64,000 bases of DNA from Macrotrachela quadricornifera (Eukaryota; Rotifera; Eurotatoria; Philodinida; Philodinidae), in the NCBI GenBank assembly GCA_022393335.1, contig JAJEKB010019969.1:35772-99771 (forward strand). Reading direction: 5' to 3'. The position numbers and the translations under genes were made by a program. Below the pieces are notes generated by a model. That model searched no databases, was not told the DNA's origin, and worked only from the letters and a program-made list of their open reading frames with translations. Positions 10,664-50,721 of the stretch are shown piece by piece; the first letter of the stretch is position 1; each line of letters starts with the position of its first letter.

Positions 10664-11457
10664 ATGCTGTGTCCATCACATGTTCTACTCATCTTTTGCA
10701 CGATAGTGCTCTTTCCAACATCAGATGGCGATGCAAGTAAGAATATGTTTTTTCCTACACAATGAACATACAAATAATAAGTTTATTTACAAAAATCAAA
10801 TGTTTTAATCTTCAAATTCAGCTCAAAATATTGCATTTCTTTTTCTAATCAAAAATTATTCGGTCGTACTTTAGTTAAGAAGCATATGATATTTGTTCAT
10901 GAATGCAAAAAATATAATACTGACATTTTCTAGGTATTACGGCTGCTCAATTGAAAGCCATCATGCCTCGATGTAAACATCCGGAATATTTGAAAAACAT
11001 TAATGCTGCCATGAAAGAAGGTTCCATTAATACATGTGTTCGAAAAGCAGCTTTTCTCGCACAAATAGCACATGAAAGTGGTGAATTGGTCTATATGGAA
11101 GAATTGGCTTCTGGTGCAGCATATGAAGGTCGAAAAGATCTGGGTAACACTCAAAAGGGAGACGGAAAACGATTTAAAGGTCGTGGTCCAATTCAATTGA
11201 CAGGTCGAGCTAATTACAGAGCAGCTGGAAAAGCATTAAGTTTGGATTTAGTAAATCATCCTGAAAAGGTCAAAACACCTGAAGTCGGATTTCGTACAAG
11301 TGTATGGTTTTGGACAACACACAAATTAAATGAACTGGCCGATAAGAAAACACTCGCATCATTTCGAATGATTACTAAAAGAATTAACGGAGGTACAAGA
11401 GGACAAGCTGATCGAGAAAAGTATTGGGCAAGAGCTAAAAAGACACTCGGATGTTAA
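10664..11457 (+). CDS. Secreted GH19-type chitinase (two exons)
   Basis: Predicted exons are 10664-10736 and 10934-11457, joined across a 197-nt GT-AG intron, giving 198 residues. Exon 1 encodes a signal peptide ending near SDGDA. Exon 2 starts in frame with the conserved ITAAQLKAIMP N-terminus of small bacterial/phage-type GH19 enzymes. Key motifs are AQIAHESGE (catalytic glutamate in HES), ASGAAYEGRKDLGNT, RFKGRGPIQLTGR and a C-terminal RINGG. GH19 enzymes cleave beta-1,4 links of chitin, and some act as lysozymes. The length fits a catalytic domain without a chitin-binding module. The open frame on its own lacks an ATG before the conserved region, so the upstream exon is needed. AATAAA lies at 11489-11494. 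A bacterial-type domain with a eukaryotic intron suggests old horizontal transfer. Confidence 0.88.
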
Positions 11458-14261: not shown

Positions 14262-15244
14262 ATGATAAAAACATCATTGATCTTGCTTTTCTTATTCTTT
14301 GGTTTTTCTATCAATGGTAATTATTTTTATTATGTATTAAGTTTAATTTTTTTTTCTTTAAGCAGATGCTGCCAATGTTGCCGCATCGGGTGATCAGAAG
14401 TTCACGTTGCGTGGACGAGTAACTTTTCCCAAGGGAAAGCCACCACCTATCGAGCGTGGAGCTAAACTCCATGTTGAAATACAAGATACATCATTGCAAG
14501 ATGCTGCACCAACAACGGTAGCAGAAACAATGGTGTCGCGAGTGAAAAAATTTCCAATACCATTCACATTGCGATACACAGCAAAAGATGTTACTGACGC
14601 AACAAAACGTCGTAACAAAAAAATGGGTCTTCCTGATGACGTAAAAAGTAATCATTACTCAATAAGTGTTACCATTAATGGCAAAGATGGAAAAACTCTA
14701 TTATTTTTAAATGATGTAGTGATTAGTGTCAAGCCATTGGGAAACGATCGTACACAGACGATTGATGTACCTGTTATAGCTGTTAAGAGTAAGATATTTT
14801 ATGAAGAACTAAGTCTTGTTGAACAATAGAAATTTCAAAGGATTTACTTTATCTCAGATTTCGAAAATATACAAAAATCAACCATTGAGAATCTTTGAAT
14901 ATTATTAACGAAGAGTTACGAGATTTTATGCTTTTATAATGACACCGTATTTATGGCGATAAAACAACTGTTGAAATAATATTTATTTTTAAAATATAAT
15001 TTTAGAATCTCCTCCAAGCACACCAGAGAGAACCAAGAAGGGTGGTACCGAACCAGGTACGTTTCCAGAAGTAGTTGGCAAGAATCTTGATGAAGCAATC
15101 AAAATTATCAAGGAGAAGACGGGTTTCACCAATGTAGTTGGCGTGAAAGAAGGAATGCCAGTTACTCTTGATCTTCGAAGAGATCGTGTTCGTATTGTTT
15201 ACAACGATAAGCGAGTGGTCACAGAAGTTCCAATAATTGCATGA
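14262..15244 (+). CDS. Secreted YbaY/YscW-like domain fused to potato inhibitor I domain
   Basis: Predicted exons are 14262-14316, 14366-14788 and 15006-15244, all with GT-AG borders and matching phases, giving 238 residues. Residues 1-18 are a signal peptide (MIKTSLILLFLFFGFSIN). About residues 30-155 match the YbaY/YscW beta-domain of bacterial outer-membrane lipoproteins: LRGRVTFPKG, GAKLHVEIQDTS, FPIPFTLRY and YSISVTI. The last 65 residues are a potato inhibitor I (chymotrypsin inhibitor 2-like) domain: TFPEVVGKNLDEA, then VTLDLRRDRVR and the VPIIA end. By alignment the reactive bond is Leu-Asp in VTL-DLR, which suggests inhibition of chymotrypsin- or subtilisin-like proteases. Without the second intron the first domain would end in a short tail, so an unspliced isoform is possible. 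AATAAA lies at 15435. Both domains are unusual in animals, so transfer from bacteria or plants is a reasonable inference. Confidence 0.82.
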
Positions 15245-21475: not shown

Positions 21476-23295
21476 TTAATCATCACAAGATGAACACAAT
21501 AAAACTCTTATATTATTCATTTGCGTATCAATAAAAATAAGATCATCTTTTCCATCTTGATTTAAATCAGTTACTCTTAATGATTGAAAGCATCCATCAT
21601 TATTTATTGTATTAATCTTCATTGACCAATAATTTTCATTAAAAAGTCCAATACTTTGTCCAAGAAACACAGTTAAAGTTCCATTACAAGTTAAAATCAC
21701 TAAATCATCAATTAAATCATTATTAAAATTAATTCGACCAATTGATGTTGGATAATTCTCGGTAAGATAAATTTGTTGAGACGCTGGCGCACCTGTAATG
21801 GACATTATTATGTTTAGTACATTTGATTGAGGAGAGATAAGTGCTATATCATCAAACACATCGTCGTTAAATTTTCCATTAATCATCATAGTTGAATATC
21901 CATACATTGTATATGTAGTATCAGATGTATAATACAGTATATTGTTATACTCATATTCACCAATCTTCTTCAAAGAGCCATACCCATCGATTAGAAATAA
22001 TTCATTTAATCCATCATGATTGAAATCACCGATGAGTATTGATCCAATAGTACCATAAGCCGAAAAAGAATATAAATATTCACGATAAAATTGATATCCA
22101 TCTCCCCGATTTAGAAATACCTTTAATTTATCAGAATAAAATAAATTATTTGAGTATTGACCAATAATTAAATCAATAAATCCATCTTGATTCATATCAG
22201 CAACTTCAATTGCATTCGGTATATCATCATAAGTATAAAGAGGAAAATCATAAGGTGGTAGAAGAAATAGATCATTTGTTGCTATACCAAAAAAAATCAT
22301 TATTTTTTTTGTTCCAGACAAAGTAACAACTAAAAAATAAAAATATATTTATTTAAATGGTCAGTTATTAAAATAATTTAGTTCATCAGAATCTATTTTT
22401 CATATATTAAATTAATCTTTATATGAATAAAACTCATTCTGCTGATAAAATCTGTATTTTTATTGATAAATATGAATTTCTAGCTGACCAAAAATGATGT
22501 TCTCATATTTTAATCGAATCATTTATAGAAGAAAAATCCTGATAATCAAACAAAATGCGTTATCGAAATAAATCTTATATATATATTTCATTATTATTCT
22601 AGATAGATATTATTTAGTCGAAAAGAAGATTTATCTTCTATGTTATATGTTAATAATATTAAGATAAAATAACATCTATACAAATTTTCCATAAATAATA
22701 AAAAGAAGACGTACCTAAATCTAAAAATGTATCACTATTAAAATCAGCAGCTTTTATTTCTTTTGGATGAGATCCATTTCCTGTTGAATAAATTTTTTGC
22801 ATTTGAAATGTTCCATCTCCATTTCCTAACATAATACTAAATGTATCAGAATAAAAATTTGTTACAGCTAAATCTACAAATGAATCTTTATTAAAATCAT
22901 CAGTAATCATTGATACAGGATTTAAACCAGTTGGATAACTTTCAGATTGATATTTAAAAATCATATCACAATTATCTAAAATAAATAATGATCAATTTAG
23001 TGTTCATTGTATTTAAACATACTTGTTATTTCTGTAGTTGTACTACTAATATTGTTAATAAAAGTTGTTTGTGTACTAGTTAAAATAAATTTCTCTTCTT
23101 TATTCTGATTTATACATGAAATGATAATAATTGTAATTATGACACCAATGGCCACTAGACCTAAACAAATGTAAATTGCTCGATGTATATATTTTCTTGT
23201 TCTAAATTAAAATAAAATGGATTAATAAATATGAGAAATTTAATCGAATTCATTACTTACGATTCATTATGTTGTTTAATAGAAGTAGAATTGAG
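21476..23295 (-). CDS. Membrane-anchored FG-GAP beta-propeller exons (3' part of the tandem gene)
   Basis: Exons 23295-23261, 23201-23023, 22975-22715 and 22330-21476. The second carries a membrane segment (AIYICLGLVAIGVIITIII) preceded by basic residues, then a Thr/Ser-rich stalk. Seven loops of the DxNxDxxxD type follow: DFNKDSFVD, DFNSDTFLD, DMNQDGFID, DFNHDGLNE, KFNDDVFDD, NFNNDLIDD and DLNQDGKDD. That is the number needed for a seven-bladed integrin-alpha-type propeller. The 35-nt exon has no ATG upstream that stays open, so these exons need an upstream donor. Module C supplies one in phase. Confidence 0.72.
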
Positions 23296-26200
23296 CTAAA
23301 AAATTTTAAAAAAAAACTTTATAGTACAGCTCTCTACAAGGTGAAAATCCGATGATAAAATTGATTACAATTAAATCATTCTATGTTATTTATTTCTGTA
23401 TTTCAAATATATAACAAAACTTCTAAACAAAAATAAACGAAAATTAATAAATATTATTATAATCACCTGAATTGTTGATATTGGTGGAATTGAATCTTCT
23501 TTAATAGTATTATTATCTTGATCAACGATAGAAATCTTTAATTGATGTGCATCTGGTGATACTGAATTTTTTTTCTTTCGAAAAATGATCAACAATTTGA
23601 CTATTATTATTTCTATGTAATATATAAGTAAATGTAATCCATTTATCAAAGATTTTAAAATAGCAAATAACATTGTTACAATATATATTGGATTATATTT
23701 CATTGTATATGAATATTGACATGATTGAGGAGCACATTCATTAAAATAAAGATCGAATGATGTTTTTTGAATCCATTTAGAAATAAAAAGATTATTAAGC
23801 ATTGTTTCAATCGTTGTATTTGCTTTCGATAATGATGAATAAGTTAAAATTTCCGTTTTAATTGGCATTGAATAGAAAATATTTGCTTGCATTATACCTA
23901 AACATGTTTTATTATATAGACAAGTTAAAGTTGATTGAAGAAGAGAATCTAATAAGAGACAACCAAAATAAAATCCTGGTATAATTGGATTTAATGAGTA
24001 ATCAGACGATGAAAAAATTAGATAAGATAATGTTGAACAATTTGATTGTATTCCACATGAACAATTTTCTTTACCATAGTTTTTTGATTGAGTTAGTAAA
24101 TTTAATGGTTGATTAACAGGTGTTCTTATAGTACTATCTAAATATTTTGATAAAAATTTCCAATTAGATTCAAAAGTTGTAGTAAGTTGATTTCCATAAT
24201 TTGTTAATTGAATTAATTTAAGTGTTTCTATAAACTGTTTTGATACTGATAATGTAAATTGTTCAAGTATTGTTTTTATTCGAATATTAAATTCATCATA
24301 TGAAATTATATTTGATGTAATAAAATCATTTTGTCCAAATATTGATAATGAGATATTTAATGTATATTCAGATAGTTTACATAATTGTGATAAGGATTGA
24401 AATTGAATACCAAGGAAATTACGATAATCAATATATACTGAACTTCTTGAATAATATGTAGTATATCCAATCATTACTCGTTTGATCCATTCAGATGAAA
24501 CAAAAATACTTAAACATATCTGATGATATTGAGGTTCATTTTGATAAATAATTTTACTATATTTAATTGCAGTACGACTACAAGGACATTTAAGTGTAAG
24601 AGGATATTGATAATATAATTCATTATATTTTGAAACTGATGGAGATTCAATAATAATTGTAGTTGTCTCTTGTTTTAATAATCCATAAAAAGTAAGAATT
24701 AATAATGATATAATTAATAAAATTAAATATATTCGAGTTGTACGTCGATTTCTTTTTATAATAATTGGATCTTGTGATGGTGGAATTGTAGAAAAAAGAT
24801 TTAATTCAATTAATTTTTGTTTAATATATTTAAATAAAATAAATAAATGATGATAAAATCCTAAATTAAATTTTTTATTTAAAAAAATTTTATATATAAT
24901 TTCTTACGTCTTGTTCTATGTATTGTTTCTTCTATTGTTATGATATTACCTCGTTTTAAATGACGAAAATAATTTGAAAGATCCATTATTGATTTAAATA
25001 TAAGAGGTAACAAAAGATATAGAATAAGATTAATACCACCTATTAATCCAATAATTCTTGTTATAATATAAATAATATTTAATCGAGTTTGAACTGTATA
25101 TTGACATGTTAAAGGATTACATTGATTAAAATAAGATTCAAATAAATTTTCATTATACCATGATGAAATAAAAAGATTATTTGCTAATGAATTAATTGTA
25201 TCATATTGATTATTAGATTTGAGTAGAGTAAAATTAGTTAATGATATATTTGAATTAATTAATTTTTTTATTTTTAAAAGACATATTTCATTATAAAAAC
25301 ATTCTAATGTTGATTTTAATATTGATTGAAGAGGAAACCATCCTTGAATCATTCCAGGAATATTCTCAATAGTTCCATTTATATTTATTGTTATATTTTG
25401 ATAACATTCATCTAAAGATGAAGGTGCACAATAGCAAAGATTGACAGATTTGTGTGATTCTACTGGACAACCAGGTTTTCTTAACCATTTTTCTGATAAT
25501 TTTTTGGTTAAATAATATGAATCAGAAAAGTCGGAATTCATTGGTGTAACGAATTGATTAATTTGAAAATTTGTAATTAATAAATTTAATATTCGTTGAA
25601 ATGATTCAGGTATTATTCTTTTAAAATGTTCAATAATTAAATTAACTTGTATTTCAAATGCTTGAGGGTTAAGTGTTTGACTAGTAATAAATTTCGTTTG
25701 ATAAAATAATCGAAGTGATTCTTGAATTGTTTCATTTGACATTTGACATAATGTTGATAATAATTGAAAAAAAAATTTCATTTGATAACGAATATCTGAT
25801 GTATTAAGTGATATTGATGAATTTTGAATAAATTGTATATTAATCCAATTAGATGAAATAAATTCACTTAAACATATTTCATGATATTGAGGTTTTATAT
25901 AAAATATAAATTGTTGATCTATTGCTGTTTTATTACAAGGACAATTTAATGTTAACGGATATTTATCATAAAGTTGAATAAAATCTTTTAATGATGGAGA
26001 TTTTTTAATAAAATAATTTGTTTGTGGTGTAATACATGTGAGTATAATAATAAGAATTATACTTATAAATAATAAAACTAAATATATACGTGTTATATAA
26101 CGTTCTTGTCGAAGAATATTTTCATTTTGTGATGGAGGAATACTTTTGAATAAATTTAATTCGATTAGTTTTTGTTTAATTAATTGATAAATATTTTTGA

Positions 26201-27792
26201 TATGATCAACAGATGAAACTAATTAAAAAACAACAATTAATATATATATATAAATACTTCAAGATGCTTATATTTTTTTAGTATTTATCATTTAAGTCAT
26301 TGCAATACTGTCAAACTTGAAAGTTGAATTTAAATACACAGTTCATTATCTTAAATTATCTCTAACAAAGATCTGGCGACACCATCGCTCATTCTGATGC
26401 CTCTGAAAGACGATCTCAGTATCTAATAATAGAAAAGTTGAATTGAAATTTCAAGTTTGACATATATAGGTAATTGAAAGACCAAATAACAACTCTTATT
26501 GTCCTGCTGCCCGCTAGGACAGAAAAAGTCCACCTATGCTCACCTCTGGTTTGTATAGTAGATGTTTTTTGTCTCTTGATAAATTTGAATATAATTGGCC
26601 ACATTGTAATAATAATAAATGGTGTAATAATTTTTAATATTGAAGATAATCCACCAAATACTCCAATTAATGATGTTGTAATAATTAATAAATTATTGCG
26701 TTTAATAATTGTATATTGACAATAATCTGGTGAACATTGATTAAAATATTTTTTAAAATATGTTTCATTTGTCCAATGAGTAATAAACATTTGACTAAGT
26801 AATTTTTCAATTGTTGAATTTGAAATTATTGAAGAATTTAATTTTTTAAAACGATTCGATGAATTAGTAAGAATATTAACAAATGTTTGATTATAAAATA
26901 CTTCAAGTGTTGATTTTAGAAGTGCATTTAACATATAGCAACCTGTTTGAAAACCAGGAATTATATTATTTTTATATGTTGCAAGACCCATACATGTTGT
27001 AGCAGTTGAACTTGAACATGTACAAGATGAACCATTTGAAAATTCATAAGTTATACCATAATAAGCAACAGTATAAGTATCATAAACGTTTTGTCCAGGT
27101 ATAATATTTGTTAATGAAGCACCAGTCATAAATAAACTTTGTGCTGTTATATTTTGAATAAATGCCAATGTTCTTAAAAATGTCTTTGGTGTAAAATCGA
27201 TAAAATCTGTTAATAATGAAGCTGTTTGAATTTGTAGAGATTCTTGTGAACCTAATTGTGATTGAATAAATTCTGTTTGTAAAAATATTTCAAGATTATT
27301 TTCAATTGTTTCTTGTGTTAATTGACAAAATGTACGAAGAGTTTTAAATTGAAATACGGCTATTCGATGAAAATCAATAAGAACTGAATTATTCCATGTT
27401 TTTTCATAGAGACTATAAAGTTGTGTTATATAATCATCAGAAATAAAATCACTTTCACATAATTCATGATAATAAGGTTTTATTTCAATAAAATCTTCAT
27501 ATTTTATTGCGATTTTTGTACATAAACATTCTAATGAGAATTTTTCTGATAAAGTAGAATATTGAATGAATGAAGGAGATTTAATTATAATTGTTTGTGC
27601 ATATGTTACAACAGAATAATAGAATCCTATAATGATCAATGATGTGATAAGAAGAGATAAATAAAGTCGAGTTGATCGACGTTGATTTTTTATAGTAACT
27701 TCATCTTCTATACCATCTTTAAATAGATTTAATTGAAGTAGATTTATTTTAAGAAATGTCCGAAAAGAGCGAAAATAAATGTTGATTAACAT
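21476..27792 (-). CDS. Predicted tandem three-module channel-like protein with C-terminal FG-GAP propeller
   Basis: Proposed exons on the minus strand: 27792-26544 (module A), 26218-24908 (B), 24860-23467 (C), 23295-23261, 23201-23023, 22975-22715 and 22330-21476. All borders are GT-AG. Phases run 1, 1, 0, 2, 1, 1. The last join needs one base fewer (see 22320-22323), and the product would then be about 1,760 residues. Each module has an N-terminal helix, one membrane segment, a Cys-rich ectodomain and a second membrane segment. A seventh membrane segment leads to seven Ca-binding FG-GAP loops outside the cell. Only module A has an ATG before its first membrane segment; B and C begin at splice acceptors. 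The B-C intron is just 47 nt. The topology is consistent (six segments return to the cytoplasm, the seventh exits). Family assignment to DEG/ENaC is tentative. Separate genes or alternative transcripts cannot be excluded from sequence alone. Confidence 0.6.
23467..24860 (-). CDS. Module C exon of the tandem channel-like protein
   Basis: Continuous frame from the acceptor at 24860 to the donor at 23467. It opens with KYIKQKLIELNLF, then a membrane segment (YLILLIISLLILTFYG), LTLKCPCSRTAIKY, YHQICLSIFVSSEW, CSCGIQSNC, IIPGFYFGCLLLDSLLQ, CLYNKTCL, YFNECAPQSCQY and a second membrane segment. The cytoplasmic tail is longer than in A or B and ends PPISTIQ at a phase-0 donor. Like module B it has no ATG before its first membrane segment (first ATG at 24474). 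The wording is homologous to A and B throughout. Confidence 0.75.
24908..26218 (-). CDS. Module B exon of the tandem channel-like protein
   Basis: Continuous frame from the splice acceptor at 26218 to the donor at 24908 (1311 nt, a symmetric 1-1 exon). The frame opens with a KQKLIELNLF helix, a membrane segment near IYLVLLFISIILIIIL, then LTLNCPCNKTAI, YHEICLSEFIS, CYCAPSSLDEC read in spaced form, FYNEICLL, YFNQCNPLTCQYT and a second membrane segment with GLIGGI. The first in-frame ATG (25781) comes after the first membrane segment, so the module cannot start there as a complete unit. It must receive its start from upstream, most simply from module A. Confidence 0.75.
26346..27792 (-). CDS. 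Module A: two-membrane-segment Cys-rich protein, with its own possible terminal exon
   Basis: The main exon 27792-26544 (416 residues) starts at ATG with A at -3. Membrane segments are at about residues 43-65 and 370-402. The ectodomain has LECLCTKIAIKYEDF, a CTCSSSTATTC cluster, IIPGFQTGCYMLNALLKSTL and YFNQCSPDYCQYT just before the second segment. The donor AGAG/GTGAGC is good. It can join either to module B at 26218 (phase 1) or to a short terminal exon 26422-26346 in phase, ending at TAA, which would give a 441-residue stand-alone protein. The two-segment layout and a GG-rich second segment (GVFGGL) recall DEG/ENaC sodium channels, but the diagnostic channel signatures are not clear. Confidence 0.7.
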
Positions 27793-36114: not shown

Positions 36115-37706
36115 TCACAACCAACTGTGCTGTCTTTCAGAAACAGTATTTGTCAAAATGTTCCCTATAGTATCTAATTTACTTTCTAATCTATTCATTT
36201 TATCTTCTAATTGACCAATTTGTTGCTTGAGTTTGACGAGTGATTTTTCAGTGCTTTTTTGTTCATCGTGTACATCACTAAGCAATGTCATTAATGATTC
36301 ATTGCCACTAACTGCATTTCTTTGTTCTTGTTTAATAAGACGTGCTTGTTGAATGGCTGTATGTAATCGATAGAGTGAATTAAATGTTGCTCGATAATGA
36401 TGACCATTTCGTTTGAGATACCAAGCTCGAACTGAATATTGAATCATTTCCATAGTTTTTTTTCGATATGCTCGTGCTCGATTGATACGAGCAACAAAGT
36501 CAAGTACGACTTGTTCCGATCGAGTTAAAGAGATCTTGCTTGTAAATACAGCAATCAGAACAGCTGATGCAAATACACCAAAGAAAGCAGTCACGATCGA
36601 GACACCTAGACAAAAATTCATTAAAATCTTTTTAAAATATAAATTGCAAATACGGAGGCGATTTTGCACCGTTATCAAAAAAAAATCATCCTCTGATCTT
36701 ACCTTGGCCACAGTAAGTTTGAGGAACCACATCGCCATATCCTAAAAGAAGTATTTATCAATATGTAGATTTCATTATCAATATAAGAGAAAGAACTAAC
36801 CAACGGTAGTAAATGTAACAATTGTGAACCACATTGCGTTGCTAAATGTTGCAGCAGATGAACCAGATCGCGTTGACAAAGAATGTATCGGTAACCACAT
36901 TCCTTTTTCACATGCACGTAACGACCAAGTGGAAATAATTAACACTAATATCATGACACAAGTCCAAATGGTAGCTGGATATATTTGTAGAAATGCTCGA
37001 AGAATAAATGAGATGGTTATTGGAACTCGATTAAGATAGCCGATGGTTCTAGATGAAGCAGCATTGACTAATTGTGAATGCAATGTTACACTACGAGCGA
37101 TCAAATAAAGACGTGCAAACACTATTGATCACGAGAAAAATTTCAATTATGATTCAATATCAAGAAAAAAACAAAAACAAATCAATTCTATCACTTACTA
37201 GGCAATGTAAGAAACATTTCAAGCCATGCTGAACCTTTTGATGATTTTGTGTTATTATAAGGAAATGGATGAATAATACATACAAGAACTTCACAAAAAA
37301 TTAATAGAATAGTACGAATATTAAGTGTGACACGCCAATCTACAATATGGTTGTTGATCGTATAGAGGCGAATATCGAGTGCATGATAGTATAATATAAG
37401 TCCGACAAGTAATAGAGTTGAAATACTAATAGAAGGACGAATGAAGATTATAATAGGTGAATTCATTTTGTTTAATCGTAACTCTGTATCAATGATCATC
37501 AGTACAAGACCGAATAAACCAATGATACACATGAAGTCGTTCACTTGACGACATCGAAAATGAAGTTCTTTACGTTCAATCAGTTGATGTTTAAATGTTT
37601 CGGCTGCTTTTTGTTCGTCATAGTCTGTTTTGCTATTTCTTCCTGACATTGGAAGAGATGCAATGAATTCAGTTGCTGTCATCATATTCTTTTTCAAACA
37701 AATCAT
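36115..37706 (-). CDS. KCNN: Small-conductance calcium-activated potassium (SK) channel
   Basis: Exons 37706-37199, 37121-36801, 36741-36703 and 36605-36115 join in phase to 452 residues. The order of parts matches SK channels: a cytoplasmic N-terminus with RKELHFRCRQVNDF before S1, S1-S4 (IETELS-like IIDTELRLN; DWRVTLNIRTIL), LPMFARLYLIARSVTLHS at S4/S5, then NAMWFTIVTFTTVGYGD as pore helix and selectivity filter, VPQTYCGQG, S6, and a calmodulin-binding region starting LTRSEQVVLDFV. The C-terminus is a coiled coil (QLEDKMNRLESKLD). The channel opens when calmodulin bound to the tail senses calcium and hyperpolarises the cell. The tiny 39-nt exon 3 carries YGD of the filter. The filter reads TVGYGD where vertebrate SK channels have SIGYGD. 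Confidence 0.93.
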
Positions 37707-38369
37707 TGGTCATAAAAAATTGATTTTCATTGTGTTTGTCGTTAGTGCCAGGGGTTCTTCTTTTTTCCAAGAAAGCAAAAACAAAAACAATTTACTTATC
37801 TAAAAACTTTTGATAACTTGAATACAATTGTCATAAGTTTCTCTATTCTCAAAGTTATTACAACAAGCAAAAAGTACAAACTTTGTATATATGCTTCCAA
37901 TAAAAAAAAAAAGAACGATACTGACGTCTTCTATATAAATGCGGCTTCTCGCGACAAATCACTATTATAGCACGCAATAGAAAAATAAATATACGGTTTT
38001 TTTTCACATCGCTTTAAGAAACATGCGATGGAGAGGAGAAATGCTTTGCTTCGCATCTCATTTATTATACTACAATTAAGAAAAATAATGTTGAATCAGC
38101 AACAAATTTATTTAGTAAATGATCAATGTATAAAACGAATCATGAGAAAAAGCAACTAAAAATCGGCCATATATTAAATCAATCTTTTATTGATAAATTG
38201 ATACAAAGTAATTACGTGTGAATTATTTGTTCATCCACATAACTTTGATTTATATTTTCCGTCTCTGTAAATCATATTAATAAATAGAAATACAATAAAA
38301 GAATAAACATTGTATTCTATATATATAATGTATATTTCCTCGACTGAACGGAAGATCATATGCAATAAA
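37707..38369. other. Intergenic, 5' side of the SK channel gene
   Basis: AT-rich. A TATATAAA on the plus strand near 37935 has no plus-strand gene behind it. Nothing else seen. Confidence 0.5.
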
Positions 38370-45449: not shown

Positions 45450-48291
45450 ATTGATACTTCACTATAGACGAAAGAACAAAATGTAATCCACTTACTCGTT
45501 GTTCGTCATTTTCTACCTTTGCATGCTTGCTTTGTTTAGCTTACTAATAATGTCTACGTCTTACTGCTTTCTTGTCCTTCTCTATGATTGGAAATTTCCG
45601 TTGAAATATCTTTCGAAATACTACCGCATGAATCATATTAATGTATAACGTAATCTACTATTGCATGTGCAAAAGAAGATTTAAAAAGGTTTATATAAAC
45701 AAAAGAAAATTACCCAACTATATTTCGAGCTATGAATCACTACCTATTACGGACGCATATCAAAAATGAAAGATAGTGATTTTAATTTATTACATGTAAA
45801 ACACACTCTTTTTTATTGAATATTTCAATACATTATCAATATTCCTGCTTTATAGACAATGACAGGCATAATATTATTTTCATTCTCAAGAAAATATTTT
45901 AGTTCTTTCTTGATCCACTAACATTTTAAGTTTAAGGCATTACGATATATACTAAATTAATCACAACTTTCGGTAAATTAATATGAGGATATCGTTCATA
46001 CACAAAAGTTAACTATAAATTGTTCTATATTCGTATTTCTTTTTGACTAATAATTCAAAAATAAATTCACTTTACAAAGGTTTAATTAACATATGCGAAG
46101 AGTAGATAAATTAATTCTGTTTTTCTTCATAAATGAATGAGAAAAGTACATGCAATGCTGAATATTCAAAATGAAATTTATTTATGGAGATTAAACCTCA
46201 TCTTATACTAAAAATGCCTATTGATGATCCTTTTGTTACGGACGATAAAACGCAAGTAAGGTTTGTTATAGATCAAAGCAATATTAAACAAATAAATTGA
46301 TGACAAATTGAAAGATATCATCCATTTTACCAAATGAATTTGATTGTACTTTTATTTACACGTTTATTATCAAATATGAGTTATTCATAAACAAATTGAA
46401 TGCTCGATATTGTACGAATCGATCAAAAACCGCCGATTGACCTCAGTCAACAAACTAATGGTTTTTTTTTCGATTAACTAGATGATTAATTGCGGTCAAC
46501 TCTCAATTGCTATGCTGCAAAAAACCTAAGAATAAATGAAATAACCGCGATTAAATGTCGGTAACGCAAAAGAACCAAAATTGATTGATAGTTTTTGATC
46601 GGTTTGCACGATTCTGGACGTCTTTTTTTATTCATATTTTTCTCAAGAAAAAACACGTTTTTATTCGAATAATAATACACATCATTCAGATATCAGCTTT
46701 CGTCAAACAAAAAGTATAGATAAAAAATTATTCTTATCAATTATTATTCTCCCTACATATGTCGATAATGAAAAAAATTAAGTATATCAAGTAGTCTGCT
46801 GGAAATGGAAGCATATCATCTCCAGTTAATTATTTAGAAGTGAGATAGAATTGCTACAAACAGTCAATCAATATCGGAAATACTGTCTCACAACTCTTCT
46901 ATTCTATAATTACGGCCCAGTTCAAAGACTTTAATCTATCATACTTTATTCATCTGCGCTGGGGATCTCTTCAAGTTTGCTCGAAAAGAACCGATGGATG
47001 ATCATGTTAAACGTTATATCTTGAAAAGATGTATTCTTCAGATTTAGATTTCTCCTTATTTCTAGAGTATATATTCTTTTGAGACTATTTTCACAAGCTA
47101 GCTAACAATAACGCAATATGATTGTAGAAAGGTAGGAAAAAAGAGACAAACAATCCAAGTTCCTTAACCAACCACTTTTGCCATATTTATAATCTTTTCA
47201 TCTAACTACTGTCTCTTCTCTTTTTTTCTTTTCCAGGTTATCTCGATTTCTATAAGCACTTCCGAGTATTTTAAAATAAATTGGGCATAAACAAAAACAA
47301 AAAAAAATCCAATATTATTATCATTACAATACAATAAAAAGAATGATCTTTACGTAGATATAGAATAAAATTTCGAAATTTTTCTTTTTTGTACTTTACA
47401 TATAAAAGCATTTTATCTTCAATATAGAAGCGTATCAATATGATTCAGTTCTTTGAGATAAAAAGAAACAAATGTCCTTAGTTTGAATCTAACACATTTC
47501 GATAAAATAAAATATTAGTTTGCAAAAAAAAAGAAAGATTCGTTTTGATTAAGAAGAGGCACGATATATAGGGCATGTCTTGTAATCATTTTTATTGTAT
47601 GTGAATGCAAGAAAAAATATGCATTGTAATAGATTTTAAAATATTTTCATTCAAAAACAACGCATTTAAATGTGTTTTATAGAACGTGCAAATGTTCTCG
47701 CGAAAATATGCGTGCTACGAAAGAAAAACAGACTAAAATGCGTCTTTTTAAATATTTTTTTCATGAGTACCATAATGCGTCGATCGATATTTTTATCACT
47801 TGCAATTGCTCATATGCGTTGTAGACAGATATACCAAAATAGTACTGTCAGTCAGGTGACCCTTTTTAGTTTTAAAATTTGTCTATCAATTCACGCAGTG
47901 GAGAATAAAAAAAGAACACTACTTGTCTATCAATAGAATCAGGATTAGTGAACTAATATAAAAGAAGATTTATTCATCTAGAAATTAATCAGTAAACTTA
48001 CATATTTCATATCCGCTAGACATTTCATGTCTTATATTCCAAAAACAAAATCTTGTAAGAAGACACATGTAACATCGTAATTCTAACACAGACGGTAATT
48101 TTCACAGAAGTGCGTCTCTTAAAATTAAATAAGTATTACATCGCAAGTTCGTTTAGTATTCTTATTATCATCATTCTACACACACACAGACTTCTTTATT
48201 ACAACAATATTAATATAAACGATTATAATCTATCATTTGCTTTTGATTTTTTCTTATGTACGGATAATTATAGTTAATATTATTTACTAAA
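45450..48291. other. Intergenic, about 2.8 kb, with one small inverted-repeat element
   Basis: Lies between two divergently transcribed TPR-type genes and presumably holds both promoters. Only the inverted repeat at 46411-46610 stands out. An ORF at 47670-47936 has no support. Confidence 0.55.
46411..46610. repeat. 200-bp element with about 30-bp inverted ends
   Basis: 46411-46440 (TGTACGAATCGATCAAAAAC...) and 46581-46610 are inverted copies with few mismatches (CGATCAAAAAC is the shared core). Size and layout fit a MITE. The interior is non-coding and rich in CGATTAA-like words. Confidence 0.5.
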
Positions 48292-50721
48292 ATGTTACGA
48301 GTTGGTCGTGTTCATCATGAATTGTATCCAATTGAAATATCTGAAAATTATGAAGCCGTATGTCTTGTATGGTTAGATATTGCTATTAGTGATGAAAGAT
48401 ATGCAAATACAATAAAAGAGATTTTGCTTGATATGCATCCTGATGTTCGACTTTATAGTGATGTTCATACATGTATTGATTTAATTAAGACACTTAATAA
48501 TCGGCATATTTTATTAGTTACATCCAATACTTTAGCCGAAGAAATTTTATCCTCAGTTCATTCATTTCGTTCTGTAGCTGCTATATTTATTTTTTCTACT
48601 GATCATATAATATCTAATTCTTTAAAAGATATCTATTCAAAAATTGTAGAAATTTTTAATGATCAAAAAATTTTATTAAAATCAATTGAAGAAACTATAT
48701 CACAAGTTCACAAACAAATACATGCTTTTTCATTATTTGATCAAAAACAAAAATCAATGCGTGATCCTCCACGAGGTTCATCTGCATTTCTTTGGCATCA
48801 TTTACTTATTTATGTTCTTAAACAAATACCTACTGATGAACAATCAAAAAAAGATATGCTTGAAAAATGTATTGATTATTATCGAGGCAATAGACGAGAA
48901 TTAAAAAAAATTGAACAATTTCGAACAACATATATAAGTGAGGATGCTATAAAATGGTATACAAAAGATTGTTTTCTTTATAGATTATTAAATAAAGCTC
49001 TTCGAACAGAAAATATTGAATTACTTTATTCATTTCGATTCTTCTTCATAGATCTTTGTAATCAATTAAAAATTCAACATGAAAAAGAAAAGAAAAAAAA
49101 AATTTTAACATTATATCGAGGACAACGTATGTCAAAAGAAGAATTTTCTAGACTTGAAAAAAGTGTTGGAACACTTATATCAACAAATGGATTTCTTTCA
49201 ACATCACGTGATTTAAATGTTTCATTATTATTTGCTGGTGAAGGTTTAACAAATATTGATGAACGATATTCTGTTTTATTTATTATTTATGTTAAATCAT
49301 CATTAAAAAGTTTTGATTTTGCTGATGTTAATGATAAAAGTGATATACCAAGTGAAAAAGAAGTATTACTTAGTCATGGTGCTTCATTTAAAATTGATTC
49401 TGTTGAAAAAAATTTTCATCTTGATATATGGCAAGTTAAATTAACAGCAACAGATGAAGGTTCGGATTATGTTCAAATATATAAATTATTAATTCAAGAA
49501 ACAATGAAAGAACAAAGTGCAACAATGCTTTTTGGAGCATTCTATTGGCGTGATATGGATTATATAAATCATGCAAAAAAACATTTTGAAATATTACTAG
49601 AAAAATTACCTTCAAATCATTCTGATATACCATTTATTTATAATTATATTGCTGCAGTACATTATGAAAAAAATGAATGGGATTTAGCATTAGAATATTA
49701 TCGGTATGCTTATACAATACGTCAAAAACAAGAATTAATAAATCATGCACATATTATTGCTTCTCTACATAATATTGGAAATATTTATTGTGAAAAAGAA
49801 GAATTTGATCAAGCTTTTGATTATTATTCTCAAGCTTTAATGATTAGTAATGATAATTATAATTATGATTCATTATCAAAAGCTGGTATATATGAAGCAT
49901 TAGGAAATCTTTTTCGAAAGAAACGTGATATAAATACAGCTTTATATTGGTTAAATCGAGCATATTATATGTATACAAGACTTTTACCTACTCCACATCC
50001 TCATATAGCTAGATGTCTTGGAAATATTGGTCTTGTACATGAAATAAAACCTGATCTTGATTTTGCTTTAAAATATTTTTTTGAAGAATTTGAAATGGAA
50101 GAACAATGTTTATCACCTGATCATCCTAATTTAGGTCTTCATTTAAATTGGATTATTACGATGTATAAAAAAAAAGGTGAATGGGAAAAAATTCTTCGAT
50201 TTTCTCGACCAAAATTAAATATAATGTTACCTAATGTTAGTACTAATCATTCACAATTAATATCATCATTACGAGTATCGAAAAATTTTGCACATTCATC
50301 TTCAATATATATTAATTATAATGAATTAACAACAATTTATTCATTATCACCTGCACATGAAATAGCATCTCTAGAAGAAAAATTTGATCAATTAACTACA
50401 ACTCGATGTATTCGAAAACTTAGTCTTTCTAATTATGATGAACAAAAAATAAATGAAGATAATATACGTTGGTTACATGCATTAAATATTGAACGACGTG
50501 TATATTCAACAGATCATCCCGAAATAGTTCGATCATTAAGATGGATTGGAGAAAGTCATGCAGAATCTATTCGGAATTATTCAGATGCATTAAGAATGTA
50601 TTCAGAAAGTTTAAAACATTTTGCTAGAGAATCTACTATTATTGAAGGTATTGAATGGGATAAATATATGGATCCTTGTATGTATAATTTTGAAATAAAA
50701 CGTTTTAGAGGTACTTTATAA
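48292..50721 (+). CDS. Arginine ADP-ribosyltransferase-TPR fusion protein, intronless
   Basis: 809 residues. Residues about 20-145 form an alpha/beta domain (CLVWLDIAI, HILLVTSN, SVAAIFIFS) seen in many bdelloid proteins of this layout; its fold looks receiver- or TIR-like but is unproven. Residues about 160-385 are an ART domain with the R-S-E triad: Arg276 in LTLYRGQ, Ser303-Thr-Ser in GFLSTSRD, and Glu355-x-Glu357 in PSEKEVLLSHGASF. Residues about 420-640 are kinesin-light-chain-type TPRs (HNIGNIYCEKEEFDQAFDYY, HIARCLGNIGLVHE), with another near 725-790. The enzyme should move ADP-ribose from NAD to protein arginines, with TPRs choosing targets. There is no signal peptide, so it acts inside the cell. 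All catalytic residues are present. Confidence 0.9.
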   Translation: MLRVGRVHHELYPIEISENYEAVCLVWLDIAISDERYANTIKEILLDMHPDVRLYSDVHTCIDLIKTLNNRHILLVTSNTLAEEILSSVHSFRSVAAIFIFSTDHIISNSLKDIYSKIVEIFNDQKILLKSIEETISQVHKQIHAFSLFDQKQKSMRDPPRGSSAFLWHHLLIYVLKQIPTDEQSKKDMLEKCIDYYRGNRRELKKIEQFRTTYISEDAIKWYTKDCFLYRLLNKALRTENIELLYSFRFFFIDLCNQLKIQHEKEKKKKILTLYRGQRMSKEEFSRLEKSVGTLISTNGFLSTSRDLNVSLLFAGEGLTNIDERYSVLFIIYVKSSLKSFDFADVNDKSDIPSEKEVLLSHGASFKIDSVEKNFHLDIWQVKLTATDEGSDYVQIYKLLIQETMKEQSATMLFGAFYWRDMDYINHAKKHFEILLEKLPSNHSDIPFIYNYIAAVHYEKNEWDLALEYYRYAYTIRQKQELINHAHIIASLHNIGNIYCEKEEFDQAFDYYSQALMISNDNYNYDSLSKAGIYEALGNLFRKKRDINTALYWLNRAYYMYTRLLPTPHPHIARCLGNIGLVHEIKPDLDFALKYFFEEFEMEEQCLSPDHPNLGLHLNWIITMYKKKGEWEKILRFSRPKLNIMLPNVSTNHSQLISSLRVSKNFAHSSSIYINYNELTTIYSLSPAHEIASLEEKFDQLTTTRCIRKLSLSNYDEQKINEDNIRWLHALNIERRVYSTDHPEIVRSLRWIGESHAESIRNYSDALRMYSESLKHFARESTIIEGIEWDKYMDPCMYNFEIKRFRGTL

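What the first reader, a model, noticed from the sequence alone, without database searches (positions are those of the whole stretch)
21476..27792. Three two-membrane-segment channel-like modules apparently encoded in one polypeptide, capped by an FG-GAP propeller
Seen: three homologous exons (1249, 1311 and 1394 nt) lie head to tail with compatible GT-AG borders. The A-B and B-C joins are both phase 1, so module B is a symmetric 1-1 exon. Only module A has an ATG before its first membrane segment. B and C are separated by a 47-nt intron, too short for a promoter. Module C then joins in phase to exons for a seventh membrane segment and seven FG-GAP loops. Known: DEG/ENaC/ASIC channels have two membrane segments per subunit and work as trimers. 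Inferred: if these modules are DEG/ENaC relatives, this would be a natural single-chain trimer carrying an integrin-like extracellular propeller, arisen by exon duplication. I know of no described animal protein with this layout.
Basis: partly seen in the sequence, partly recalled or inferred. Interest (0 to 1): 0.88.

Follow-up and report, generated by a model that had tools for sequence, protein, structure and literature searches.

The report
Natural single-chain trimer membrane protein
Three related modules, each with two predicted membrane segments, and a set of seven FG-GAP loops are predicted to be spliced into one protein that likely works as a built-in trimer, perhaps a gated pore; annotated proteins of bdelloid rotifers show the same three-module order.

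Summary
On the minus strand, seven exons (27792-21476) join in frame into a predicted 1,760-residue protein. It has three homologous modules (32-36% identical), each with two predicted membrane segments, then a seventh segment and seven FG-GAP loops. The layout is not a chance join. An Adineta ricciae protein aligns over the whole length at 54% identity, and 69 of 90 proteins counted (window included) have exactly three full modules. Modules group mainly by position, and the B-C splice sites are kept in 9 of 9 loci aligned. Some paralogues carry modules 2 and 3 in one uninterrupted reading frame. No RNA was available, so splicing is inferred.

The DEG/ENaC identity is not supported. The Pfam ASC model does not recognise the modules, although it gives 109 matches elsewhere in the genome; profile comparisons and PDB sequence searches give no link. 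One seven-residue TM2 motif is the only sequence resemblance. AlphaFold2 folds a module well (pLDDT 86) and places three modules of a relative in one arrangement (pTM 0.73). My reading is an uncharacterised family of covalent pseudo-trimers, most likely surface receptors or channels. The pore and the ligand role are inferred.

The parts
26544..27792 (-). Exon 1: start codon and module A (M1), residues 1-416; predicted membrane segments near residues 45-63 and 368-393, TM2 motif GVFGGLS
26219..26543 (-). A-B intron, phase 1, GT-AG; carries a 154-nt inverted-repeat element
24908..26218 (-). Exon 2: module B (M2), symmetric 1-1 exon, no Met before its first membrane segment
24861..24907 (-). B-C intron, 47 nt, phase 1; donor and acceptor kept in 9 of 9 loci aligned
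23467..24860 (-). Exon 3: module C (M3) and predicted cytosolic linker
23261..23295 (-). Exon 4: 35-nt linker exon
23023..23201 (-). Exon 5: seventh predicted membrane segment (about 23176-23120) and predicted extracellular stalk
22715..22975 (-). Exon 6: FG-GAP loops 1-2
21476..22329 (-). Exon 7: FG-GAP loops 3-7 and stop codon

Best explanation
Three homologous modules lie in tandem exons and are predicted to be spliced into one 1,760-residue membrane protein, in which they likely pack as a covalent pseudo-trimer around a shared membrane core that would act as a gated pore beneath a predicted extracellular FG-GAP propeller. Shown: homology of the modules, the open frame, splice-site conservation, the order M1-M2-M3 in relatives, and three as the usual number of modules. 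Predicted: two membrane segments per module with a cysteine-rich ectodomain between them, cytosolic module joins, a seventh segment that puts the propeller outside, and a confident mutual arrangement of three modules in a relative. Inferred: that the six helices form one core, that this core conducts or gates, and that the calcium-type FG-GAP loops bind a ligand that controls it. The three modules are non-equivalent (about 32-36% identical within the window chain, 54-91% identical to the same position in close paralogues), so the trimer would be an obligate A-B-C assembly, most likely fixed by one old triplication, in the way that voltage-gated Na+/Ca2+ channels fix four domains in one chain.
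For: Open 1,760-residue frame over seven exons. The A. ricciae relative P0074 is 54% identical over 1-1760/1-1755. Module counts in 90 proteins (89 plus the window; lengths admitted about 968-3080 aa; split hits merged, 'full' meaning a merged span over 300 profile positions): 69 have three full modules, 15 have three with at least one split or truncated, 4 have two, 1 has four pieces in a disordered model, 1 has one piece; none has more than three intact modules. Position tree of 207 modules: 8 label changes against 98 in shuffles, least possible 2. Modules 2 and 3 share one uninterrupted frame of 779-836 aa, with no room left for an intron, at C898, C4170, C1910, C4511 and C183; the first two and the next two look like near-copies, so these are about three independent cases. 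Splice sites are kept: B-C 9 of 9 loci, A-B 6 of 6. Topology: 34 cysteines in the three ectodomains and none in four predicted cytosolic segments; sequons 8, 8, 5 against 0, 0, 0 in the first three cytosolic segments. AlphaFold2: module pLDDT 86.4, pTM 0.70; three-module relative P0140 pTM 0.73, where mutually unplaced modules would give about 0.36-0.55.
Against: No RNA evidence for the joins in this locus. Four annotated relatives have only M2+M3 (P0113, P0115, P0119, P0121), so M1 may be dispensable or those models may lack an exon. In the 7 kb fetched at C4427 (L054) only one module, M3-like, was seen, and at C4728 (L051) two modules of ambiguous class; long introns or solo modules are both possible there. 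At C4835, C4593, C4559 and C3916 the position classes are ambiguous. The fourth predicted cytosolic segment holds 3 sequons, against the topology there. The AlphaFold2 trimer is of a propeller-less relative (28% identical), not of this protein, and its coordinates and error matrix could not be inspected, so a central pore was not seen. No sequence relationship to any channel was found. Module C of the window has lost the TM2 GG motif. dN/dS is 0.36-0.98 in 27 partly overlapping comparisons, so constraint on the sequence is loose.
Confidence: 0.5

Rival explanations
1. The modules form a membrane scaffold, not a channel: a three-fold cell-surface receptor or adhesion protein whose propeller does the recognition, in a fast-diversifying family.
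For: Large family: 91 and 87 scored matches (exon pieces, lower bounds) in two searches of the genome. High dN/dS, 0.36-0.98 in 27 comparisons. The cap varies: FG-GAP in 46 of the 89 proteins by its Pfam column, NHL in one (P0146), neither in 42. No channel family match.
Against: Retention of three ectodomain modules, and of a GG motif near the C-terminal end of most modules (41 of 69 M1, 55 of 69 M2, 59 of 69 M3), suggests that the helices do more than anchor.
Confidence: 0.35
2. A true but highly diverged DEG/ENaC concatemer.
For: Two predicted membrane segments per module around a cysteine-rich ectodomain; a strand right after TM1 and right before TM2 in the model; TM2 motif G-L-F-G-G-L-S/T beside G-L-W-I-G-I-S in ASC proteins of the same genome.
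Against: PF00858 hits no module tested and nothing on this contig; profile-profile probability 0.2%; no DEG/ENaC chain among PDB sequence hits up to E 10 with three profiles.
Confidence: 0.12
3. Separate genes or a gene-model artefact: the three modules are tandem duplicates with their own transcripts.
For: No RNA data; B ends in its own stop codon soon after TM2 if the 47-nt intron is not removed; four relatives are annotated with M2+M3 only; only one module was seen in 7 kb at C4427.
Against: No Met before TM1 in B or C; conserved splice sites; two-module uninterrupted frames in paralogues; three-module annotated relatives in five named bdelloids.
Confidence: 0.05

Closest known systems
DEG/ENaC/ASIC/FaNaC channels (Pfam ASC PF00858)
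   Same: Two membrane segments per unit, large cysteine-rich ectodomain, three units per assembly (recalled); a short GxxxGxS-like TM2 motif
   Different: No sequence or profile relationship found; three units in one chain; added seventh segment and FG-GAP propeller
P2X receptors
   Same: Known (recalled) trimers of two-segment subunits with an ectodomain between the segments
   Different: No P2X Pfam match among the 3 modules or the 28; covalent joining; propeller
Voltage-gated Na+/Ca2+ channels (recalled)
   Same: Principle: internal duplication fixes non-equivalent pore domains in one chain
   Different: Four six-segment domains there, three two-segment modules here
Integrin alpha FG-GAP propellers (Pfam PF01839, PF13517)
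   Same: Seven FG-GAP-type loops with calcium-type motifs
   Different: Here it is the C-terminal, predicted extracellular cap of a seven-segment protein
FG-GAP and NHL multigene families of Adineta vaga (PMC3846280)
   Same: That paper lists FG-GAP and NHL proteins among lineage-specific expansions (passages seen)
   Different: The passages seen do not describe the three-module architecture

Membership tests
DEG/ENaC (Pfam ASC) | Match to the ASC profile above its curated cut-off | tested here: not met
   No ASC match for the 3 window modules at E<=10 or for 28 modules of this genome at E<=1; 109 ASC matches in the genome (93 of 123 candidates scored), none on this contig. For 32 and 48 further relatives ASC is not among the 25 families shown, of 27 and 28.
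DEG/ENaC (Pfam ASC) | Two membrane segments around a cysteine-rich ectodomain | tested here: met
   Hydropathy, AlphaFold2 module, cysteines only in ectodomains; all predictions
DEG/ENaC (Pfam ASC) | GxS selectivity motif in TM2 | tested here: inconclusive
   Pattern G-[LVIMF]-[FYW]-x-G-x-[ST] in 36 of 69 M1, 9 of 69 M2, 11 of 69 M3, mostly near the C-terminal end; window A has it, B and C do not
DEG/ENaC (Pfam ASC) | Palm/finger/thumb fold | tested here: inconclusive
   Module model compared with solved structures by Foldseek and VIA-align 2
DEG/ENaC (Pfam ASC) | Sodium-selective, amiloride-blocked conductance | not testable with these tools
   Needs electrophysiology
FG-GAP beta-propeller | Seven FG-GAP repeats matching PF13517/PF01839 | tested here: met
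   FG-GAP_3 E 3e-17 and FG-GAP E 8e-9 on exon 7, FG-GAP_3 E 2e-9 on exon 6; seven loops by motif
Three-module family (defined here) | M1-M2-M3 in fixed order in one chain | tested here: met
   by gene model, not RNA
P2X receptors | Match to the P2X Pfam profile | tested here: not met
   No P2X match for the 3 window modules at E<=10 or 28 modules of this genome at E<=1

The most novel reading that the evidence does not exclude
Bdelloid rotifers carry a large family of natural single-chain trimeric channels of an unrecognised fold, made by one ancient triplication of a two-helix module, with three specialised non-equivalent subunits in one polypeptide and interchangeable extracellular propellers (FG-GAP, NHL or none) as ligand sensors.
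Probability: 0.4. Interest if true: 0.85.

Novelty: new variant of a known kind. Interest (0 to 1): 0.7.

Why it matters
Trimeric two-segment channels (ASIC/ENaC, P2X) are known to me only as assemblies of separate subunits; covalent trimers of them are laboratory constructs (recalled). A natural single-chain trimer would show how three-fold channels can fix a hetero-assembly the way four-domain sodium and calcium channels did. It would also offer natural sequences in which each position evolves alone. It gives a testable identity to a large set of bdelloid surface proteins that are annotated only as hypothetical.

Tried and rejected

Considered and rejected. The 900-aa M1+M2 frame at C4065 (L022) was first read as an intronless fusion. 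One search shows a 60-nt in-frame, stop-free stretch there with the usual splice sites, so it may be an intron; it fuses A and B either way. The two-module proteins P0113, P0115, P0119 and P0121 are all M2+M3 and were not taken as a different class. P0117 (four pieces) and P0085 (an extra HODM domain) look like faulty gene models. The open_frame column (1262-1345 aa at some places) was tested at two places, C183 and C4559, and is not one uninterrupted three-module frame there.

Full report
What is there. The minus strand from 27792 to 21476 carries seven exons with GT-AG introns that join into a 1,760-residue open frame. Exons 1 to 3 encode three modules of 416 to 464 residues that are 32-36% identical to each other (E 2e-42 to 1e-60). 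Each has hydrophobic segments near both ends. The A-B and B-C joins are phase 1, and the B-C intron is 47 nt long. Frames B and C have no Met before their first hydrophobic segment. Exons 4 to 7 add a seventh hydrophobic segment and seven FG-GAP-type loops, with Pfam FG-GAP_3 E 3e-17 and 2e-9.

Is it one protein? No RNA was available, so this rests on four kinds of indirect evidence. First, a search with the A-B-C part of the predicted protein returned 89 proteins. The best, P0074 of Adineta ricciae, is 1,757 aa and aligns with the window protein from end to end at 54% identity. The organisms named there are Adineta ricciae, A. steineri, A. vaga, Rotaria sordida and Rotaria sp. Silwood1. Their names are 'unnamed', 'hypothetical', 'uncharacterized', 'transmembrane protein' or, for P0146, 'NHL repeat containing protein'. 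Second, the B-C donor and acceptor are kept at the same place in 9 of 9 loci aligned (window, L010, L012-L018), while the intron body varies; L011 and L019, near-copies of L010 and L013 by their scores, were not added. The A-B sites are kept in 6 of 6 (window, L020, L022, L026, L029, L031); L025, L030 and L038 were not added. Third, in paralogues of the same genome modules 2 and 3 lie in one uninterrupted frame of 779-836 aa (C898, C4170, C1910, C4511, C183). The modules abut or nearly abut there, so no intron fits between them. Further two-module frames exist at C4835, C4593 and C4559, where the position class is ambiguous. Fourth, modules occur in the order M1-M2-M3 at C4980, C4530, C4619, C183, C898, C4170 and C4065. 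Against this, the 7 kb fetched at C4427 showed only one M3-like module, and C4728 showed two of ambiguous class.

Three is the usual number. Among 90 proteins (89 plus the window), 69 have three full modules and 15 have three with at least one split or truncated. Four have two, one has four pieces in a disordered model, and one has a single piece. The search admitted lengths up to about 3,080 aa, so longer chains could have been found. The four two-module proteins are all M2+M3. A FastTree tree of 207 modules from the 69 proteins groups them largely by position: 8 label changes, against 98 in shuffles and a minimum of 2. The largest single-position branches hold 53 of 69 M1, 51 of 69 M2 and 45 of 69 M3, the last with one M2 inside; many of the rest lie on long branches whose place is unsure. 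Of the 72 smaller proteins, the best-scoring position class is M1 for 56, M2 for 13 and M3 for 3. At least seven of these span parts of two modules, and P0061, P0070 and P0072 have narrow margins. I read this as one old triplication, kept ever since. Tandem repeats that are free to vary would be expected to show other copy numbers.

Topology and structure. With segment borders set by hand, the three ectodomains hold 10, 12 and 12 cysteines and the propeller part 5, while the four cytosolic segments hold none. N-glycosylation sequons are 8, 8, 5 and 3 outside against 0, 0, 0 and 3 inside. So the last cytosolic linker does not fit as cleanly as the others. AlphaFold2 gives module A a mean pLDDT of 86.4 and pTM of 0.70 on 48 sequences. 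A three-module relative under the length limit (P0140, 1,197 aa, A. steineri, annotated partial, no propeller, 28% identical) reached pLDDT 80.2 and pTM 0.73 on 32 sequences. A simple calculation gives pTM of 0.36-0.55 if the modules were confident alone but mutually unplaced. The model therefore places them relative to each other, but coordinates and error matrix were not available, and neither a pore nor a three-fold axis was seen.

Family. The modules are not recognised by Pfam ASC, although the same genome has 109 ASC matches (exon pieces) elsewhere. ASC proteins of this genome find ASIC, ENaC and FaNaC structures by sequence, so that kind of search works for true members. Profile comparison with them gave 0.2% probability, with a shallow ASC profile. 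The one resemblance is TM2: G/A-L-F/Y-G-G-L-S/T in many modules, beside G-L-W-I-G-I-S in the ASC proteins. Window modules B and C lack the G-x-S part, and C lacks the GG as well. I do not file the family under DEG/ENaC. Every relative whose organism is shown is Adineta or Rotaria. The organism of the window itself was not told.

Mechanism. The most likely reading is a covalent pseudo-trimer: three non-equivalent modules around a shared membrane core, and a propeller held outside by the seventh segment. Whether the core conducts is inference from the number three, the TM2 motif and analogy with trimeric two-segment channels. The main rival is a non-conducting surface receptor. The family is large (91 and 87 scored matches, exon pieces and lower bounds). 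Its dN/dS is 0.36-0.98 in 27 comparisons, some on pieces of one locus. The cap varies: FG-GAP in 46 of 89 proteins by its Pfam column, NHL in one, neither in 42.

Literature. Seven searches of the held library were answered. Of the papers holding the terms I saw listings and abstract starts of 14 of 15, 1 of 1, 4 of 4, 1 of 1, 15 of 231, 12 of 452 and 12 of 783. None of those listed is about this layout or a natural single-chain trimer of two-segment channels, by title and abstract start. I also saw passages of PMC3846280, which lists FG-GAP and NHL proteins among expanded A. vaga families. Most subscription papers are not held, so absence from print is not shown.

Noticed in passing
window 26309-26462: A 154-nt element with 25-nt inverted-repeat arms (88% complementary) lies in the A-B intron; it is 95% kept in two homologous loci (C2561, C1523), and 74-77% relatives lie on C4471 and C2764: likely an old non-autonomous inverted-repeat transposon.
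   Followed up: partly
window 10924-11454 and 14362-14826, + strand: ORFs matching Chitinase class I (PF00182, E 3e-15) and a YscW-type domain (PF09619, E 1e-8) sit a few kb apart; possibly foreign genes.
   Followed up: no
window 48274-50718, + strand: 815-aa frame combining an ADP-ribosyltransferase-type domain (PF03496, E 7e-7) with tetratricopeptide repeats (E 5e-22).
   Followed up: no
window 37194-37709, - strand: SK-type calcium-activated potassium channel exon (PF03530, E 7e-31).
   Followed up: no
P0146 (Adineta steineri, 1,605 aa): Three modules followed by NHL repeats instead of FG-GAP: the propeller type looks exchangeable within the family.
   Followed up: partly
window modules A, B, C against own-genome paralogues: dN/dS between 0.36 and 0.98 in 27 comparisons, in line with fast diversification or loose constraint.
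   Followed up: partly
whole-genome search with PF00858, control genomes: Among 14 named control genomes the ASC family model rang over its cut-off only in Thermotoga maritima, unexpected for a channel family of animals; not looked into.
   Followed up: no
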